Virus record (IMG/VR): IMGVR_UViG_3300020442_000009
Location: 1-64,000 of that record
Origin: a virus
Length of the DNA: 64,000 bases
Direction: 5' to 3' (one strand)
The stretch's first letter is position 1. Each line of letters starts with the position of its first letter. Below the pieces are notes generated by a model. The model saw only the letters and a list, made by a program, of their open reading frames with translations, was not told the DNA's origin and made no database searches. The position numbers and the translations under genes are program-made. Of the stretch, positions 7,331 to 37,232 are shown piece after piece.

Positions 7331-8326
7331 CTATAGCATAGGAAAAAGTATCTTAAAATTTTTTCTCAAAAGTTTAATTGCAAGGTCTTTCTGTTTCACT
7401 TCACATTCCCATTTTGCTTCCATATTTGGTTCAATGGCAATCATAGGTGGAAGATTACCTAGAGCAAAATAATCTGCATGGGAACGAGGTTTTTGTGGAG
7501 TACCTTCTGACCAATGAAAGACAGGAGCAAGGAAATTGTTATCACCTCTTCCTTGATTTATCCATGTATATGCACACCTTTCTGCTTGAAATACAATACT
7601 GCGATCTTCTGATGGATTGCAAAAGTCATGTAGATTGTCATAGCAAACAGGAATATTAACACCATGAACTGCAAATAAATGCTCGCTAAATTTAATGCAA
7701 TTATCTACATTAAAGAAACCTTTGTCTTCATTCTCGATAGTTAGTCGATTGTAAACACCTTTATCGCACATAGAAAGATTGCGAAAAAATCTAGTTGCAA
7801 CTACCTCTAGTGTCTCATCTGCTTGTGGAGTATAATTAACATGAATATTCATTGGTGCAGTATGGTCTTGAGGTAGACCTAGCATATCAAGCACACTTGC
7901 TTGAAAATTTAGTTCATTTATTGTGCGATCAACTTTTGACCTATCTGTTGATGCAAGAACATTAAATTGGTCGGGATGAGAACCGATAGATATATTAAAT
8001 TTTTTAGCAATTTTACCTGCAAAAGCCAACTCTTCTTTTATCTGAACTAGATGAGGTAGATCATCTAAGCATACATCTGTTTTGTCATCTGTGATAAGAG
8101 GAAACAATGCAGAACTTAGTCTGTAATGAGATATATCATTCAATGCACAATGATTTAGTATGTATCTAGTCACCCTTGCATTATGCAAGATTCTCTCTGA
8201 CAACTGATGGATTGCATCATCTCTATCGAGATCATTGAATCTTTTGCGAGTCATAGTGCGAAAGGAATATTTCTTCTTATCCTTTAGCTTTAGTTCTTCG
8301 CTAATACAAGTAAGACCTAGTATCAT
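7331..8326 (-). CDS. uvdE: UV damage endonuclease UvdE
   Basis: A 331-residue TIM-barrel endonuclease of the UvdE family, which nicks 5' of UV photoproducts and some other lesions. All expected metal-binding residues can be placed: H67 (SHYRLSS), H117 (GSHPDQF), H162 (NIHVN), E198 (TIENED), D230 and H233 (CYDNLHD), H271 (FHWSEG), H283 (SHADYF) and E303 (NMEAKWE). Length is normal for the family. It should give the phage light-independent repair. A second UvdE-like gene at 31153-32241 has lost nearly all of these residues. Confidence 0.93.
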   Translation of the reverse strand: MILGLTCISEELKLKDKKKYSFRTMTRKRFNDLDRDDAIHQLSERILHNARVTRYILNHCALNDISHYRLSSALFPLITDDKTDVCLDDLPHLVQIKEELAFAGKIAKKFNISIGSHPDQFNVLASTDRSKVDRTINELNFQASVLDMLGLPQDHTAPMNIHVNYTPQADETLEVVATRFFRNLSMCDKGVYNRLTIENEDKGFFNVDNCIKFSEHLFAVHGVNIPVCYDNLHDFCNPSEDRSIVFQAERCAYTWINQGRGDNNFLAPVFHWSEGTPQKPRSHADYFALGNLPPMIAIEPNMEAKWECEVKQKDLAIKLLRKNFKILFPML

Positions 8327-29197: not shown

Positions 29198-29405
29198 TTT
29201 TAGGAATAAGTCCTCTCTCTTCACATAAAGCTACTGAATAACCAACTCTATAACTAAATTTATCAATGAAAAACACAAAACCCATAATTACATAAGGTTC
29301 CCAAGTTTCAAATCCTATTTTATAGAATAAAATAAATGCCACCAAAATAACTGGCAGGAATTTATTTAAACTATAATTTAACATCATTAATTTATTTTCT
29401 CTCAT
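29187..29405 (-). CDS. Membrane protein, 72 aa
   Basis: Two hydrophobic stretches (about 15-28 FLPVILVAFILFYK, and 37-48 VIMGFVFFIDKF) and an acidic C-terminus. Overlaps the dCMP deaminase gene by 4 bp. Function unknown. Confidence 0.6.
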   Translation of the reverse strand: MRENKLMMLNYSLNKFLPVILVAFILFYKIGFETWEPYVIMGFVFFIDKFSYRVGYSVALCEERGLIPKNDE

Positions 29406-29836
29406 TTTACTTCTATTACTTCTATGTTTGCTTTTTTTAATAAGTTTATTCCTTCTTTATTTCTATATAAATCTCCGTAAACAACTCTAGATATTCCTGA
29501 CTGTATAATTAATTTAGCGCAATCAATGCAAGGAGATATTGTAATATACATAGTTGCTCCGTCGCTGGACTGCGTTGATTTAGCCAATTTAGTGATTGCA
29601 TTGCTTTCTGCATGTAAGACTTCTGGTTTAGTTATTAATTTATGTTGTAAATTTGGGTTAGGGTTGTATTCGCAGGTATTGTCAAAATTTTTTGGAGTTC
29701 CATTATATCCATCAGAAATAATTGCTCCATCCTTTACAATTAAGCAACCAACTTGTTTCCGTTTAGCTTTAGAAAGCTGAGACCAAGTTTTAGCCATTGA
29801 AAGATATGTTTCATCAAGCTGTTTCTGTGACGGCAT
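29402..29836 (-). CDS. dCMP deaminase
   Basis: A 144-residue zinc deaminase. HAESNAI (zinc His and catalytic Glu, about 75-81) and SPCIDCAKLI (two zinc Cys, about 101-110) are intact, preceded by an N-terminal S-K-A-K-R-K-Q-V-G-C block and GYNGTP, typical of deoxycytidylate deaminases. Makes dUMP for dTMP synthesis, fitting the other nucleotide genes. Its start overlaps the upstream gene by 23 bp. Confidence 0.92.
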   Translation of the reverse strand: MPSQKQLDETYLSMAKTWSQLSKAKRKQVGCLIVKDGAIISDGYNGTPKNFDNTCEYNPNPNLQHKLITKPEVLHAESNAITKLAKSTQSSDGATMYITISPCIDCAKLIIQSGISRVVYGDLYRNKEGINLLKKANIEVIEVK

Positions 29837-30525: not shown

Positions 30526-30676
30526 GAAACCATGTTGATTTTGGGGTTTTCTTATCTTTTAGTTTAAAGTACCAATAAAAAGGACACGCTAAAGAGTGGC
30601 CTATACTATATATTAAAATAATAGTGCCTAAAAATACCCAAACACTACTAAAAATAAATTTTAAAACTTCTTCCAT
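30515..30676 (-). CDS. Small membrane protein, 53 aa
   Basis: Reads MEEVLKFIFSSVWVFLGTII onward: a membrane helix at about 6-30, then CPFYWYFKLKDKK. Overlaps the nuclease-like gene end by 16 bp and the GKGDKPRP gene by 11 bp. Function unknown. Confidence 0.55.
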   Translation of the reverse strand: MEEVLKFIFSSVWVFLGTIILIYSIGHSLACPFYWYFKLKDKKTPKSTWFHEN

Positions 30677-31143
30677 ACACTCACTCCGTCTACATTCAAT
30701 AAATCTTCGACTTGAATTTGAGTTATTGTTTCTAAATTTCCAGTTCTTCTATATAAGCGATATTTAGCTGACCAAGGATTAGAAACATATGGTAAATCCC
30801 ATCTTACCATCTGAGAAGAAGATAGCCAATTTAAAAGCTTTGTTCGATTAACGAAAATAAAAGATTGAGAGGTTTCAAAAACAATAAACTGGGCAGAGCC
30901 ATAAATCCATCCATCTTTACCTTTCGATGTTTCATATTCTATCCAAACCCATTTATTGGCATTTTTAGAATTTTTCTTTTTTATATCAACTGTAACTTTA
31001 GTTGGTTTTTTATTGTTATGACCCTCTAAAATTAGATCAATATTATTCTTTTTTTGACCAAAATTAGGTTTATGCACAATATAGCCTTTCGATTCAGCTA
31101 TTTCAATAAACATTGATTTATAATTATTGTTTTTCGATGGCAT
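30661..31143 (-). CDS. PD-(D/E)XK-like nuclease, tentative
   Basis: A 160-residue basic protein. NIDLILEGHNNK (Asp) followed by strand KVTVDIKKKN (D-x-K) resembles the D-x(n)-(D/E)-x-K site of small resolvase/nuclease folds, with a later strand pair SAQFIVFETSQSFIFVNRTK as in phage proteins of this type. The C-terminal part is rich in Tyr, Arg and Trp. Catalysis unproven. Confidence 0.5.
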   Translation of the reverse strand: MPSKNNNYKSMFIEIAESKGYIVHKPNFGQKKNNIDLILEGHNNKKPTKVTVDIKKKNSKNANKWVWIEYETSKGKDGWIYGSAQFIVFETSQSFIFVNRTKLLNWLSSSQMVRWDLPYVSNPWSAKYRLYRRTGNLETITQIQVEDLLNVDGVSVWKKF

Positions 31144-31152
31144 ACATGGTAA

Positions 31153-32241
31153 CTATTGAACCTTGTCGTATAAGGCATTAAAAGCTCTAGATGCATCTCT
31201 AGACTTTTTGTATTTAGTTTTTGTGATAGTCATAATCACTTCTTCTGTTACCTTGTCTTCTGCCTCAGGCATAGTAAATTTTACAATACCTTTGTCTCTT
31301 GATTTAATATCGCATTCCCATTTTATAGTATAATTAAAATAAGGAATTGCATTACTTAAAAACTCAACAGGAGTATTAGACGAACCTTGTTTTTCAGACC
31401 ATAGAAAAATTGGAACAACTCCCATCCATGTTTCATGGAAAGCTCCTATATTAACTTCTTTTTCTATAGTATTGCCTTCTTCTATCATTCCGGGATTGCG
31501 TTCATCCGCAACATTAGAATAACTTAAGATCATACCTTTTTCATATTTTTCGTTTAAATAAACATGAAAATATTTAAATAAATTAATTGGATTCCAAAAG
31601 CCAGACTCTTCATTTTGTAAAACTAATCTTTTTTGAGTGTCTTTGTTTAGCTTCTCAAAATTTTCATAAAAAGCTTGAACAAACTTTACTGCACTGCCAT
31701 GATTTTCTTGTTCTGGTTGAGCAAAAGGTTTTATTATAATCGGATTTGCTGCATTTGATGGAAATCCTGCAGTCTCGAAAAACCAACTGTGAAAATCTAG
31801 TTCCTTTACTGTTTGATCAACTAATGTATCATCTGTAGAGGATAGATTATTTGTGGAATCTGGATAAACTGAAAGTGTTACATTGTATTTTCTAGCAGAA
31901 AAACCAATAGACCTAATTAATTCTAAAATTTTACTAGAATTAGGTAGATTGGTGATCGAAACATTTATAGAATCTTTAAAATCCCCAGCTAGACTAAAAA
32001 TAGAACTGCTAATTCTATAATGATTGATATTAATTTTTGGAATAAACTCTATGATGTCTTTTGTTAGGCTTAAATTATGTTCTATTCTAATTCCTAGTTC
32101 GCCCAATGCCTCATCATCTCCTCGCTCCTTTTTTAAAGAGGAAAAGTTTCGCTGAGTAATTCCCGAAAAAGACCAAGTGCCTTCTGGCTCTCTTTCTTTG
32201 AGAAGTTCTGAGGTTCCTATTAATCCGTATGAGACATCCAT
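31153..32241 (-). CDS. UvdE-fold pseudoenzyme
   Basis: A 362-residue protein aligning with the phage UvdE (7331-8326) over nearly all its length: NHYRISSSIF, YPDSTNNLSSTD, LVLQNEESGF, YSNVADERNP, FLWSEK, KWECDIKSRD. Of nine metal ligands only the first His (H74) remains; the others read Y126, K171, Q209, S242, A245, L280, about T290 and T305. The fold is kept but nicking should be lost. About 45 extra C-terminal residues (from about 318) are absent from the active paralogue. Preceded by a TGTAAT box, so probably late and possibly structural or DNA-binding. Confidence 0.85.
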   Translation of the reverse strand: MDVSYGLIGTSELLKEREPEGTWSFSGITQRNFSSLKKERGDDEALGELGIRIEHNLSLTKDIIEFIPKININHYRISSSIFSLAGDFKDSINVSITNLPNSSKILELIRSIGFSARKYNVTLSVYPDSTNNLSSTDDTLVDQTVKELDFHSWFFETAGFPSNAANPIIIKPFAQPEQENHGSAVKFVQAFYENFEKLNKDTQKRLVLQNEESGFWNPINLFKYFHVYLNEKYEKGMILSYSNVADERNPGMIEEGNTIEKEVNIGAFHETWMGVVPIFLWSEKQGSSNTPVEFLSNAIPYFNYTIKWECDIKSRDKGIVKFTMPEAEDKVTEEVIMTITKTKYKKSRDASRAFNALYDKVQ

Positions 32242-32254: not shown

Positions 32255-32512
32255 CTAAATTTCTGGCAATTGCTCTTTCTCTACATTCTCAGTAGGCTTT
32301 TTGTCTTCTGATTTATATATAACATAATCTGGGGCTCTATCATTATTCTTATGCCTGTTGGGAAAGACTATTACTTTTACTTTCTTTTTAATTCCAAGTT
32401 CGTCAATTTCAATATTGCCTGTAAGATACTTTCCTTTTGGGCCATCTTTTGTCCAAAAAGCTCCCATCTCACGATTACTCCAATCTGACTTTTGTTTATT
32501 ATCTTCTAACAT
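32255..32512 (-). CDS. DUF736-like protein
   Basis: An 85-residue protein with GAFWTKDG, YLTGNIEIDELG, KVIVFPNRHKNNDRAPDYVI, matching the beta pattern of DUF736 (G-x-F, Y-x-G-x-I, N-x-x-K-x-x-D-x-A-P-D-[FY]). Function of the family unknown; many occur in mobile elements. Divergent from the plus-strand gene at 32529 with only 16 bp between starts. Confidence 0.7.
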   Translation of the reverse strand: MLEDNKQKSDWSNREMGAFWTKDGPKGKYLTGNIEIDELGIKKKVKVIVFPNRHKNNDRAPDYVIYKSEDKKPTENVEKEQLPEI

Positions 32513-32528: not shown

Positions 32529-32849
32529 ATGGTTGTGATTTATGATTGCCAGTTAACTGAGCCACCTAGCTCAATTCATTGCTTTAGGGATGTAACATTA
32601 TTTGCTCAAGTATTTTTAAAAGCTGATAATTTAATTAAATGCCCAAAGGGTACAAGAACCGCTTATTGGGAGTGGATAAAAAATTATGGTGCTCACGACT
32701 TTGTGAAATACTTAATTAAAGAGGAAGAGCAACAAGTCGGTGTGACAGTTGGCTCTACTAACTCTACAATTACAATTGATCATATTGATGAATTTAATTA
32801 TGCAAATTTAATTAATTCTTTAAAAAATTATAATTACTCGGAGTTTTGA
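32529..32849 (+). CDS. Hypothetical plus-strand protein, 106 aa
   Basis: Starts MVVIYDCQLTEPPSSIHCFR. Alpha/beta composition with TRTAYWEWIKNYGAHDFVKY and a short Gly/Thr turn. It converges with the 32834-33181 gene (16-bp overlap). Together with the sulfotransferase it is one of the few plus-strand genes, and both carry a TGTA-type box. Not recognised. Confidence 0.65.
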   Translation: MVVIYDCQLTEPPSSIHCFRDVTLFAQVFLKADNLIKCPKGTRTAYWEWIKNYGAHDFVKYLIKEEEQQVGVTVGSTNSTITIDHIDEFNYANLINSLKNYNYSEF

Positions 32850-33296: not shown

Positions 33297-33836
33297 TTAA
33301 CGATATTTTTTTTGAAGCAGCCTCCAGCGATCAGAATCAATCTCTTTATTGCCACTATCTATAGCATACAACATTTCCATAATTTCGTCAAGCGAATTAT
33401 AAATATATTTATGAGGAAACATTCCTAACATCCAGAGAGGAGTTTTAGCTTTACCGCCTTCCATACTCACAAAAACAGGTTTTTTCTCTCTCACTGCAGT
33501 TACTATTTCCTCTGCGCTTCCCCAAGAGGCCACATCTGGTACAAGATGAGCAATAATAAAGTCTGATCTATCTACAAGATTAAGATCATAAGCTCTCACC
33601 ATTTTCATTCTTTCTGTTACCCTGTCATATTGTTTTGTTTTCATCCAAGTTTCCATTTCTTGACGAGAAGCTTCATCTTCTTCTACATCTTTCATAAATG
33701 GCTTTTTATAAGGGTCAAAACAAGTAATACCTAAAGGTTCTAGCTTTTCTGTAACTTCTTCACGCCAATTTCTGCCGCTTAGATATTGCATATGTCCGAC
33801 AAGATAAGTTTTAGTCTTATATAGTAAGTTACTCAT
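33297..33836 (-). CDS. Nucleoside 2-deoxyribosyltransferase-like protein
   Basis: A 179-residue Rossmann-like protein: KTYLVGHMQYL start, ITCFDPYKKP, then DLNLVDRSDFIIAHLVPDVA and SWGSAEEIVTA (Glu equivalent to the catalytic nucleophile of deoxyribosyltransferases), and KPVFVSMEGG. These enzymes swap bases on deoxyribonucleosides; related DUF4406-type proteins also hydrolyse N-glycosidic bonds. Fits the nucleotide set. The promoter 33843-33871 overlaps a TTTCGAC/CAGTGGACGA element. Confidence 0.75.
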   Translation of the reverse strand: MSNLLYKTKTYLVGHMQYLSGRNWREEVTEKLEPLGITCFDPYKKPFMKDVEEDEASRQEMETWMKTKQYDRVTERMKMVRAYDLNLVDRSDFIIAHLVPDVASWGSAEEIVTAVREKKPVFVSMEGGKAKTPLWMLGMFPHKYIYNSLDEIMEMLYAIDSGNKEIDSDRWRLLQKKYR

Positions 33837-33842
33837 GATATA

Positions 33843-33871
33843 ATCATACCATGAAACTCGTCCACTGTCAA
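33843..33871 (-). promoter_or_regulatory. Sigma70-like promoter, leaderless
   Basis: Minus strand: TTGACA (33871-33866), 17 bp, TATGAT (33848-33843), 6 nt to the ATG at 33836. The -35 and early spacer are part of the repeated element at 33858-33888. Confidence 0.7.
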
Positions 33872-33909: not shown

Positions 33910-35175
33910 TTAGGCAATAATATCTAAAATAGGGGGCTTGCCATTAGAAATTTTAAATGGTCTACCACTTGGCGAGTATGTAATTTTTTCAACACTTAAC
34001 CCCATAGCATATGCTATAGTAGCATTAATTGATTCTATATCAACTCCATTTTCCTCAACATAGTGAGCTCCTTTGTCAGATTTACCATGAACATAACCAG
34101 CTTTTATTCCTCCGCCAGCAAATAGAGCACTAAATGCAGATGGGTGATGATCTCTACCAACTCTACCAGCTTTGATTTCTGGGCTTCTGCCAAATTCACT
34201 AGCAACAACAACCATTGTATCGGAAAGCAAGCCTCTGATATTTAAATCTTCTAATAAAGAACTTAATCCGGCATCTAAAACTGCTCCACGAGTTTCCATA
34301 TTGCCAAAAACATCATTATGCATATCCCAGCCCCCATAAGACACTTCAATAAATCTAACTTTATTCTCAACTAATCTCCTAGCAAGCAAGCAACCTTGGC
34401 CGAAATTATCTCTACCATACCTATCTCTAGTCTCTTCGCTTTCTTTAGTTAAATCAAAAGACTCTAGATCTTTACTTTTCATTAAACTAATTGCATTGTC
34501 ATATAAATCAGAATAAGCTCTAACTTTTTTTTGCGGAAAATCTTTGGAAAAATGTTTATTGAGTAAACGTGATGCATCTAAACGTTTATAAAACATGTTT
34601 TCATCGACATATCCAGATTTTTTAACATTTTGTATACCAGCATTTGGGTTTCCTAGCGGCAACGGGCCATGCTTGCTTTCAAAATAACCAGCTCCAATAA
34701 TTCCACTACCGCCATTAATTTTTATATTATCAGGTAATGTTTCATTTAAACTTCCGCTTAACTTACTAACCCAACTACCCATACTAGGATGGACAATTGT
34801 TCCTCTTTTTTGGTAACTTGTGTGAAGTAAATAATTAGCTTGATCGTGAGCTCCTTGATTACTATTAATTGAACGAACTAAAGATGCTAAATGCATTTGT
34901 TTTGCAGTTTTAGGTAACCAATGACCTAACTGAATGCCATCTGCAGAGGTGTCGATAGCTTCAGTTTCACCCATAATCTCTTTGTTTTCTGGTTTAGGGT
35001 CAAATGTATCTACATGAGTCATTCCGCCTGTCATATTCAGAAATATAACATGTCTAGCAGTAGGCACTCTCGTGGTCTTTGCTATAAGGTTTGGTCCATA
35101 AATTAAGGCATTAACGCCTAAATACGTTTTTGCAATTGTTTTTGCAAAATCTCTTCTTGATAGTTCTTCGTTCAT
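33910..35175 (-). CDS. DUF1501 family protein (PVC-type), Tat signal
   Basis: A 421-residue protein of the DUF1501 family, an alkaline-phosphatase-like superfamily member abundant in Planctomycetes and Verrucomicrobia. N-terminal twin-arginine motif SRRDFAKTI (residues 6-14) is followed by a hydrophobic stretch, so Tat export is likely. Hallmarks: VIFLNMTGGMTHVDTFDPKP (about 43-62), GGWDMHNDVFGNM, VVASEFGRSPEI, GRDHHPSAFSALFAGGG. It lies 5 bp downstream of the DUF1549/DUF1553 gene, the usual pairing in PVC chromosomes. Very unusual in a phage. Confidence 0.92.
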   Translation of the reverse strand: MNEELSRRDFAKTIAKTYLGVNALIYGPNLIAKTTRVPTARHVIFLNMTGGMTHVDTFDPKPENKEIMGETEAIDTSADGIQLGHWLPKTAKQMHLASLVRSINSNQGAHDQANYLLHTSYQKRGTIVHPSMGSWVSKLSGSLNETLPDNIKINGGSGIIGAGYFESKHGPLPLGNPNAGIQNVKKSGYVDENMFYKRLDASRLLNKHFSKDFPQKKVRAYSDLYDNAISLMKSKDLESFDLTKESEETRDRYGRDNFGQGCLLARRLVENKVRFIEVSYGGWDMHNDVFGNMETRGAVLDAGLSSLLEDLNIRGLLSDTMVVVASEFGRSPEIKAGRVGRDHHPSAFSALFAGGGIKAGYVHGKSDKGAHYVEENGVDIESINATIAYAMGLSVEKITYSPSGRPFKISNGKPPILDIIA

Positions 35176-35180
35176 AGTAA

Positions 35181-37205
35181 TTATTTAATAAATATAAATT
35201 CGTGAGAATTAAGTAAGATCCAAGATATGTGCTTGAACCCATCCTTTTCATCTACAAAGTTTTTTAAAATTTTTAATTCATTGGCTTTGGGTTTTCTTCC
35301 AAGAATCGATAAGAATGCACTCGTTACTTGTTTTTCTTTGTTTTTTTCTGCTCCTATTAATTTTATAAAGTCTGCATCTTTTTTGTTTAAAATATTAGTT
35401 TCAACAAAACCATTTAAAAGATTTAATACTTGTGTGGTGTTTGGTTCTGAGTTGCTATTATCTATTTGTTCTTTATCGCTACCACCAAACTGCCTAATTA
35501 AGTGACCTCCGGGCGCTGGATGTTGCAGATAGCTGCTTCTTACTAAATTTCTATCTTTAATGGTTTTATTTTGATATTTAGAATTAATTATTCCAAGTAA
35601 ATTTCTATTTCCTTTGTTTTCTTCTGCTATTTTTTTAAAATCATCATATATTTCTTCCCCTGTCATATCTTTATATCTTTCATATATAGGAGTATAGTCT
35701 TGCATATTATGTAAGTAAACTCTTTCTTTGGTGTCAATATTATTATATACTAAAGTCACAAGAGAATCCCATAATTGCTCTCCTGTCATTCTCCTTAAGA
35801 TAGGACCTTCAAAATCATAACTTTCGAGAGTTTTGTAATCTTCTTTTTTGCTTTCTCTTTGAAATAGTTTTGTGTTTAATAAAATTCTTTGATATTCTCT
35901 TAAGTCATAATTCACACTAACCATTAATCTTTCTAAATATTTCATTAATTTAGTATTGCTGGCAATTGTGTCATCCATCATTGTATCTATGGGTTCAATA
36001 AGCCCCGCTCCAAAAATTTGCTTCCAAATTCTATTACTAATCATTGTTGTGAATCTAGGATTATCTTTGCTGACAATCCAATCTGCGAAAATTTTTCTAC
36101 TCTCACCTTCTGGGGACTCTGTTGGCTTTGGGGTAAAAATAGCTTTAGCAACAACTGTATCTCCGGGGTTGCCGTCATCTTCAGCAAAATCTCTAGGTAA
36201 TTTAATTGTGCCTGTGCCATTATTATCTATACCAAATTGTATAGAATCTCTGACTTGATTTCTCCAATTATTAAATAATCCAGCATTGGCGTCGCCATCT
36301 GCATTAATCGCTCTACTTAAGGCTCCTATGACTTTGCCACCCTCCTTTGTTCTTACGTTGCCAATTCCAGAAGTGAATGCTGTCATTTCATAAAATTGTT
36401 TTTGACTCCACTTGTCAAATGGGTGATTATGGCACATGGCACATTCTAATCTAGTGCCGAGAAAAATTCTAATAGTGTGAGATAAATTATCTTCTTGCAT
36501 ACCTCTGTCTCTTAGGTAATAGCTTATTGCCTCCCCGCCATCAAAAAGTTTTCCTGTACTTGAAACTAATTCTTTTACTATTGTATCATAATTTTTTTTG
36601 TCTGCAATTGCATCTCTTAACCACTGCCTGTAAGCAGATCCAACATTTATATTTGTTCCATTAACTCTATCTTTTACTCTCAGCATGTCAGTCCACCAGT
36701 TTAGTTGGTGGTTTACATAGCCATTTGAATGTAGAAGTTTTTGTACTAAATTATCTCTTTTATTACTATCCCTGTCATCAATAAAGCTATTGATTTCTTC
36801 TTGAGTGGGGATTCTTCCGACTGTGGTAAGATATAATCTTCTTACATAGGAATAGTCATCTAAAGGCTTAGTCTTTTGTAATTTTTTTGATCTTAAGTTT
36901 TGATCTATTAATTGATCTATATAAGAAACATATTGTTTTAGTGTGCGTTCATCTACGGGAGTTTTGACTGTAGGTATTGTGCTATACCTATTTTTAGAGA
37001 AATATAATTCTATTTGTTTTTGAGTATCTAGTGTCAATAAATCAATTTTAAACCTAAATTGTTGTAAATCTTGAGATCTAGCTATTCTAACATGGGTTTC
37101 ATTTGCCTCTAATATTTCAGCATCAAGAGATTTACCATCTTTAAAATAAAGAGTGGAGCCAAAACAAAAAGTAGTGGCAAAGAAGAGAAATATAATGTTT
37201 TTCAT
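35181..37205 (-). CDS. DUF1549/DUF1553 (PSCyt2-PSD1) protein with SHD1-like N-terminus
   Basis: A 674-residue exported protein: signal peptide (MKNIIFLFFATTFCFGS), an SHD1-like segment (YFKDGKSLDAEILEANETHV, about 20-65), DUF1549 with RRLYLTTVGRIPT (about 122-134) and a CxxCH motif (LECAMCHNHPFDKWSQK, about 253-269), then DUF1553 (GEQLWDSLVTLVYN onward, ending with SAFLSILGRKP). Start ATG 37205 (a TTG at 37208 also opens the frame). PSCyt1 (PF07635) is absent. Partner of the adjacent DUF1501 gene; a TGTAAT box lies 27 nt upstream. Confidence 0.92.
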   Translation of the reverse strand: MKNIIFLFFATTFCFGSTLYFKDGKSLDAEILEANETHVRIARSQDLQQFRFKIDLLTLDTQKQIELYFSKNRYSTIPTVKTPVDERTLKQYVSYIDQLIDQNLRSKKLQKTKPLDDYSYVRRLYLTTVGRIPTQEEINSFIDDRDSNKRDNLVQKLLHSNGYVNHQLNWWTDMLRVKDRVNGTNINVGSAYRQWLRDAIADKKNYDTIVKELVSSTGKLFDGGEAISYYLRDRGMQEDNLSHTIRIFLGTRLECAMCHNHPFDKWSQKQFYEMTAFTSGIGNVRTKEGGKVIGALSRAINADGDANAGLFNNWRNQVRDSIQFGIDNNGTGTIKLPRDFAEDDGNPGDTVVAKAIFTPKPTESPEGESRKIFADWIVSKDNPRFTTMISNRIWKQIFGAGLIEPIDTMMDDTIASNTKLMKYLERLMVSVNYDLREYQRILLNTKLFQRESKKEDYKTLESYDFEGPILRRMTGEQLWDSLVTLVYNNIDTKERVYLHNMQDYTPIYERYKDMTGEEIYDDFKKIAEENKGNRNLLGIINSKYQNKTIKDRNLVRSSYLQHPAPGGHLIRQFGGSDKEQIDNSNSEPNTTQVLNLLNGFVETNILNKKDADFIKLIGAEKNKEKQVTSAFLSILGRKPKANELKILKNFVDEKDGFKHISWILLNSHEFIFIK

Positions 37206-37232
37206 CAAAAGCTAATAGTTTATTAATAATAA

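What the first reader, a model, noticed from the sequence alone, without database searches (positions are those of the whole stretch)
31153..32241. UvdE paralogue with eight of nine metal ligands replaced
Seen: clear co-linear alignment with the intact phage UvdE at 7331-8326 (HYR(L/I)SS, PD...N.LSSTD, K/NRL, NP, WSE, KWEC), but the catalytic residues H117, H162, E198, D230, H233, H271, H283 and E303 correspond to Y, K, Q, S, A, L, about T and T. Known: those residues bind the three metals in UvdE. Inference: a retained fold without nicking, with an added C-terminal tail and late-type promoter, is a repurposed protein, perhaps a DNA-lesion binder, inhibitor or virion protein.
Basis: partly seen in the sequence, partly recalled or inferred. 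Interest (0 to 1): 0.8.

Follow-up and report, generated by a model that had tools for sequence, protein, structure and literature searches.

The report
Dead UV-repair enzyme kept as adaptor
A phage gene family descended from a UV-damage DNA-cutting enzyme has lost its metal-binding cutting site in different ways in each of its three branches, yet it is strictly conserved and carries a short C-terminal tag also found on small proteins at the same place in sister phages, so it most likely works as a docking protein and not as an enzyme.

Summary
The observation largely holds. The 362-aa ORF at 31153-32241(-) is a UvdE-fold protein (Pfam UvdE 47.8 bits, cut-off 24; AlphaFold pLDDT 90.8; closest solved fold UVDE, Z 32). 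Of nine metal-ligand positions seven are replaced, one changes E to D, and one (Asp, as in most related phage UvdEs) is kept. I found 15 relatives in viral contigs and one on a phage-like contig of a MAG. All 17 form one clade in three branches, each with its own substitutions. The 76 other complete viral UvdEs keep the ligands. dN/dS is about 0.03 in the closest pairs, so this is not decay. The gene is not a local duplicate of the active UvdE, which most of these phages also carry.

New clue: the tail ends in FNALYD. Small coiled-coil-like proteins (102-194 aa) in sister phages, downstream of the same DUF736-like gene, end in the same tag; no record checked has both. Best reading: a catalytically dead barrel kept as a non-enzymatic adaptor acting through its C-terminal tag. 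The partner is unknown. A late promoter, a virion role and a specific nuclease partnership are not supported.

The parts
31153..32241 (-). UvdE-L: catalytically dead UvdE-fold protein, 362 aa, group A
31156..31281 (-). C-terminal tail, residues 321-362, predicted helix of low confidence, conserved in all 17 relatives
31165..31182 (-). C-terminal tag FNALYD (residues 354-359), shared with small proteins of sister phages
31426..31440 (-). FHETW motif (residues 268-272), in 16 of 17 UvdE-L (L133 reads FNETW), absent from the other viral UvdEs
32255..32512 (-). DUF736-like protein, 85 aa, 13 bases upstream of UvdE-L; also upstream of the small tagged proteins in sister phages
   Evidence: (PF05284 E 7e-4, below cut-off)
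30661..31143 (-). PD-(D/E)XK-type nuclease-like protein, 160 aa, 9 bases downstream; a core gene of the block also in phages without UvdE-L
33297..33836 (-). nucleoside 2-deoxyribosyltransferase-like protein, upstream in 17 of 17 UvdE-L loci
33843..33871 (-). sigma70-like promoter TTGACA-17-TATGAT before the deoxyribosyltransferase-like gene; a box at the same place in 16 of 17 loci
29402..29836 (-). dCMP deaminase of the same block
7331..8326 (-). the phage's UvdE with the ligand set intact (D80, H117, H162, E198, D230, H233, H271, H283, E309)

Best explanation
The protein is a pseudoenzyme: a full UvdE TIM barrel that no longer has the three-metal centre and so, by inference, does not nick DNA. 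It is kept as a non-catalytic docking or adaptor protein of the phage's DNA and nucleotide metabolism programme, and its C-terminal tail, ending in the tag FNALYD, is the part that matters most. Shown: fold, loss of ligands, three differently inactivated branches, purifying selection, fixed genomic slot next to a DUF736-like gene (groups A and C), and the same tag on small coiled-coil-like proteins in that slot in sister phages. Inferred: that it does not cleave DNA, that the tag binds a partner, and that the barrel serves as a carrier or second contact surface (the conserved LFKYFHVY and GAFHETW helices). The partner is not identified.
For: Fold: AlphaFold pLDDT 90.8; UVDE structures Z 30-32 at about 2 A, next best fold Z 17. 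All 17 UvdE-L lack the ligand set; all 76 other complete viral UvdEs keep HHEDHHH plus E. UvdE-L is one clade, support 1.0 with or without the ligand columns. The three branches replaced the ligands differently but fixed most of the new residues within each branch. dN/dS 0.029 and 0.032 in the closest pairs, 0.10-0.13 in group A with saturated dS, against 0.12-0.21 for active UvdEs. The tag: among 4063 ORFs scanned it occurs near the C-terminus only in UvdE-L, in the small proteins and in one tagged UvdE with its ligands intact (L073). 19 distinct small proteins end in it or a close variant; in 20 of 21 loci the DUF736-like gene is upstream. None of 15 UvdE-L records has the small protein, 8 of 25 others do (Fisher p 0.016). 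The small proteins' first 34 residues align co-linearly with the UvdE N-terminus (hhalign P 0.0005-0.0019, no shuffle of 100-200 reaches it).
Against: No partner, no expression data and no binding data. The tag could be a structural capping helix; AlphaFold gives it low confidence (pLDDT 50-66). Group B keeps four ligands and puts E and D at two others, so it may still bind metal. Many pocket residues besides the ligands stay invariant (R76, D87, D128, R205, N243, N249, E283), which a pure carrier would not need. In group C the tag is followed by 10-21 further residues. The exclusivity test is modest, several records are fragments, and related sequences inflate it.
Confidence: 0.52

Rival explanations
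1. Non-cleaving DNA binder: the barrel still grips damaged or unusual DNA, without metals, and marks it or shields it.
For: UvdE fold fully retained; each branch has gained one Lys or Arg in the former metal centre (K171 in A, R280 in B, K209 in C), which could take the place of metal charge next to a phosphate; invariant R76 and R205; DNA and nucleotide metabolism neighbours.
Against: The lesion-probing Gln-Tyr/Phe pair is changed (S-T in A, G-F in B, K-F in C); domain net charge median about -14 against -2 (p 7e-9); basic residues at 42, 190, 213, 289 and 313 are lost in part. One Lys/Arg gained per branch is not beyond chance.
Confidence: 0.17
2. A new enzyme: the pocket has taken on another chemistry, metal-free or with one metal held by residues other than the UvdE set.
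For: Many pocket-side residues remain invariant in all 17 (D87, D128, N243, D246, E283, D311, new H181). Group B keeps H117, D230, H233 and H283 and has E and D at two other ligand positions.
Against: The former ligand positions hold different residues in the three branches, so no shared new active site is visible there; sister phages do with a barrel-less tagged protein at the same place.
Confidence: 0.15
3. Regulator or inhibitor of the phage's own active UvdE, or a decoy for a factor that attacks it.
For: Eight of ten UvdE-L virus records of 100 kb or more also carry an active UvdE.
Against: Active UvdE is equally present in many relatives without UvdE-L; UVDE works as a monomer (own knowledge); the tag points elsewhere.
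Confidence: 0.08
4. Specific targeting subunit of the PD-(D/E)XK nuclease encoded just downstream.
For: 9-base gap or 4-base overlap in group A; nuclease relatives directly follow active UvdEs in L032 and L037.
Against: The nuclease is a core gene of the block in most relatives without UvdE-L; groups B and C have UvdE-L without it nearby.
Confidence: 0.06
5. A decaying pseudogene of UvdE.
For: Catalytic residues are lost.
Against: Open in all 17 relatives; dN/dS about 0.03 in close pairs.
Confidence: 0.01

Closest known systems
UV damage endonuclease UvdE/UvsE (PF03851; Thermus 2j6v, Sulfolobus 3tc3 and 4gle)
   Same: Sequence profile, TIM-barrel fold over residues 1-324 and conserved second-shell residues
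   Different: No three-metal ligand set, changed lesion-probing pair, acidic domain, added C-terminal tail with FNALYD tag
Inactive nuclease relatives used as binding proteins, such as the RNase II-like pseudonucleases of fungi (PMC8097288, PMC8934651; abstracts read only)
   Same: A nuclease fold that lost catalysis, in those papers repeatedly, while the protein is kept for binding
   Different: Different fold and family, phage instead of fungus; here nucleic-acid binding is not shown and a C-terminal tag is the leading candidate
Endonuclease IV (AP endonuclease, same TIM-barrel type)
   Same: Barrel architecture and three-metal chemistry of the ancestor (Z about 16)
   Different: Much more distant than UVDE; ligands absent here

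Membership tests
UvdE (PF03851) by descent | Profile score over the curated cut-off | tested here: met
   47.8 bits against 24
UvdE (PF03851) by descent | UVDE-type TIM barrel | tested here: met
   pLDDT 90.8; Z 32.0 to 3tc3, next fold 17.2
UV damage endonuclease (functional) | Nine ligands of the three-metal centre | tested here: not met
   7 replaced, E309 to D311, one Asp kept
UV damage endonuclease (functional) | Lesion-probing Gln-Tyr/Phe pair | tested here: not met
   S129-T130 in the window protein
UV damage endonuclease (functional) | Nicks DNA 5' of UV lesions | not testable with these tools
   Needs an assay
Pseudoenzyme (conserved catalytically dead homologue) | Catalytic residues lost across the family | tested here: met
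   17 of 17 members; the other 76 complete viral UvdEs keep theirs
Pseudoenzyme (conserved catalytically dead homologue) | Purifying selection | tested here: met
   dN/dS 0.029 and 0.032 in close pairs
Pseudoenzyme (conserved catalytically dead homologue) | No residual catalytic activity | not testable with these tools
   Needs an assay; group B keeps part of the site
Phage virion protein | Present in virions, or encoded among structural genes | tested here: inconclusive
   Neighbours are nucleotide-metabolism genes and sigma70-like promoters; no proteomics

The most novel reading that the evidence does not exclude
A stepwise conversion, caught in living lineages, of a DNA-repair enzyme into a docking peptide: a tagged UvdE with its ligands intact (L073), then tagged barrels inactivated independently in three branches (UvdE-L), then small proteins that keep only a UvdE-like N-terminus and the C-terminal tag. 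All serve one unknown partner together with the DUF736-like protein.
Probability: 0.27. Interest if true: 0.82.

Novelty: new variant of a known kind. Interest (0 to 1): 0.58.

Why it matters
I found no described pseudoenzyme of the UvdE family (open-access papers only). The family gives a natural series, from active to differently inactivated to probably barrel-less, in one genomic slot, which makes the question of what an enzyme fold is kept for after catalysis is gone directly testable. It also warns that 'UV endonuclease' labels on such phage genes would be wrong, and it points to a short C-terminal tag and a DUF736-like neighbour as an unexplored phage module.

Tried and rejected
Specific UvdE-L plus nuclease pair: first attractive because the genes abut, dropped as leading idea when the nuclease proved a core gene of the block in phages without UvdE-L. 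Late promoter: TATAAATA is not enriched and none lies before the gene. Decay: contradicted by dN/dS. Recent duplication of the local UvdE: contradicted by the tree. Tag on other proteins of this phage: in the window genome only UvdE-L carries it near its C-terminus; a looser pattern also hit a 75-aa ORF, which I take as chance. IQ-TREE on 94 sequences did not finish, so FastTree was used; IQ-TREE codon models ran but I recovered no omega, so dN/dS values are Nei-Gojobori counts. The UVDE structure paper I asked for is not held. Foldseek against viral models gave UvdE-like matches at the top and other barrels below. One search was an empty placeholder query and says nothing. A single Lys or Arg gained in the former metal site of each branch was noted but is not beyond chance.

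Full report
1. Observation. The ORF at 31153-32241(-) is intact and encodes 362 aa. It matches Pfam UvdE at 47.8 bits (cut-off 24) and the UvdE at 7331-8326(-) at 112.3 bits; the two share 30% identity over 312 residues. The whole 125,909-base viral record holds just these two UvdE-fold genes.

2. Ligands. I aligned 94 distinct viral UvdE-fold proteins gathered and read the columns of the metal ligands. The position of Thermus H69 is Asp in most related phage UvdEs (D80) and stays Asp in the window protein (D87). The other seven are Y126, K171, Q209, S242, A245, L280 and P291. UvdEs of isolate phages of Erwinia, Dickeya, Bacillus (phage G) and Vibrio read HHHEDHHHE in the same columns; SP-15 and LIS04 have a gap and a K or R at two columns, which may be misalignment. 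The list of nine ligands and the Gln104-Tyr105 probing pair come from my knowledge of the Thermus papers, which are not in the library.

3. Family. Searches found five close relatives at 63-65% (group A: L003, L004, L005, L010, L011), one at 41-45% on a contig of a Halobacteriovorax MAG with phage synteny (L014), and others: group B (L014, L107/L134, L135) and group C (L106/L126, L108/L129, L127, L128, L130-L133). With the window protein that makes 17. They form one clade with support 1.0, also when the ligand columns are left out, far from the active UvdE of the same phages. Ligand states (H117, H162, E198, D230, H233, H271, H283) differ by group: A is Y(C)/K/Q/variable/A/L/S or P; B is H/E/D/D/H/R/H; C is Q/H/K/N/F/T/H, F or L; all have E309 as D. 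None of the other 76 complete viral UvdEs has lost one of the seven or E309 (one further sequence is a fragment). The collection search for those used patterns that include one ligand motif, so it is biased towards intact proteins. The simplest reading is that the common ancestor had most ligands, and that the site was lost separately in A and C and partly in B.

4. Selection. Nei-Gojobori dN/dS is 0.029 (L131/L108) and 0.032 (L135/L107); group A pairs give 0.10-0.13 with saturated dS; active UvdEs give 0.12-0.21. Within each group most former ligand positions are fixed for the new residue. This excludes decay.

5. Structure. AlphaFold with a 51-row alignment gives pLDDT 90.8 and the eight-strand barrel; residues 321-362 are of low confidence and partly helical. 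Foldseek and VIA-align put UVDE first (Z 32 over 275 residues at 2.0 A), other barrels at 17 or less. New invariant residues cluster in the helix LFKYFHVY, in GAFHETW, in H181, and in the tail (Y344, N355, A356, Y358). The domain is more acidic than other UvdEs.

6. Neighbourhood. In all 17 loci a nucleoside 2-deoxyribosyltransferase-like gene lies upstream and two small conserved genes downstream; a sigma70-like box (TTGAC-A/T, 17 bases, TATAAT-like) lies just before the deoxyribosyltransferase-like gene in 16 of 17 (10 or more matches of 12 occur in 3.5% of random 80-base stretches). A DUF736-like gene directly precedes UvdE-L in groups A and C. The PD-(D/E)XK-like neighbour is present in 24 of 35 other UvdE-bearing records, mostly without UvdE-L, in the order deoxyribosyltransferase-like, DUF736-like, variable slot, PD-(D/E)XK, dCMP deaminase, dUTPase, small genes, Endonuc_Holl-like, with variations. 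So UvdE-L fills a slot in a conserved block, and the nuclease is not its dedicated partner.

7. The tag. In several phages without UvdE-L the slot holds a 102-194-aa protein, rich in charged residues and of coiled-coil character by inspection, ending in a motif like S-x-x-I-[FLIM]-N-[AS]-[LI]-Y-x-x, the same C-terminal motif as UvdE-L's FNALYD. A collection scan gave 19 distinct members, all but one of 21 loci with the DUF736-like gene upstream. No UvdE-L record has one (0 of 15 against 8 of 25, p 0.016). Their first 34 residues align with the UvdE N-terminus better than any of 100-200 column shuffles. L073, a single UvdE with its ligands intact, also ends in a similar tag (FNQIYGR). I take this as the best evidence that the tail is the working part and the barrel is dispensable in sister phages; that the small proteins are UvdE-L remnants is possible but not shown.

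8. Verdict. A conserved pseudoenzyme branch of UvdE with a likely docking function: new variant of a known kind. No pseudoenzyme of this family turned up in the literature at hand. Weak points: function is inferred, the partner is unknown, group B may still bind metal, and a new pocket activity is not excluded.

Noticed in passing
window 33910-37208 (-): DUF1501 (E 3e-104) and PSCyt2/PSD1 (DUF1549/DUF1553) genes, a pair I know from planctomycete and verrucomicrobial genomes, inside a phage; homologues beside UvdE-L in L134 and L135 (both) and L129, L131, L132 (DUF1501).
   Followed up: partly
window 33843-33871 and the same place in 16 of 17 UvdE-L loci: A sigma70-like promoter whose -10 box ends 6-13 bases before the start codon of the deoxyribosyltransferase-like gene, so that the transcript would be nearly leaderless.
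   Followed up: partly
window 32529-32849 (+): A conserved gene on the opposite strand, divergent from the DUF736-like gene across a gap of 16 bases with an AT-rich core; relatives in groups A and B and in several phages without UvdE-L.
   Followed up: no
L073 2995-4164: A UvdE with its ligands intact and a long Lys/Glu-rich tail ending in FNQIYGR, a possible active ancestor-like form of the tagged proteins.
   Followed up: partly
L014 (PBIO01000024.1): A contig binned into a Halobacteriovorax MAG has the same phage gene order; either a binning artefact or a hint at the host of this phage group.
   Followed up: no
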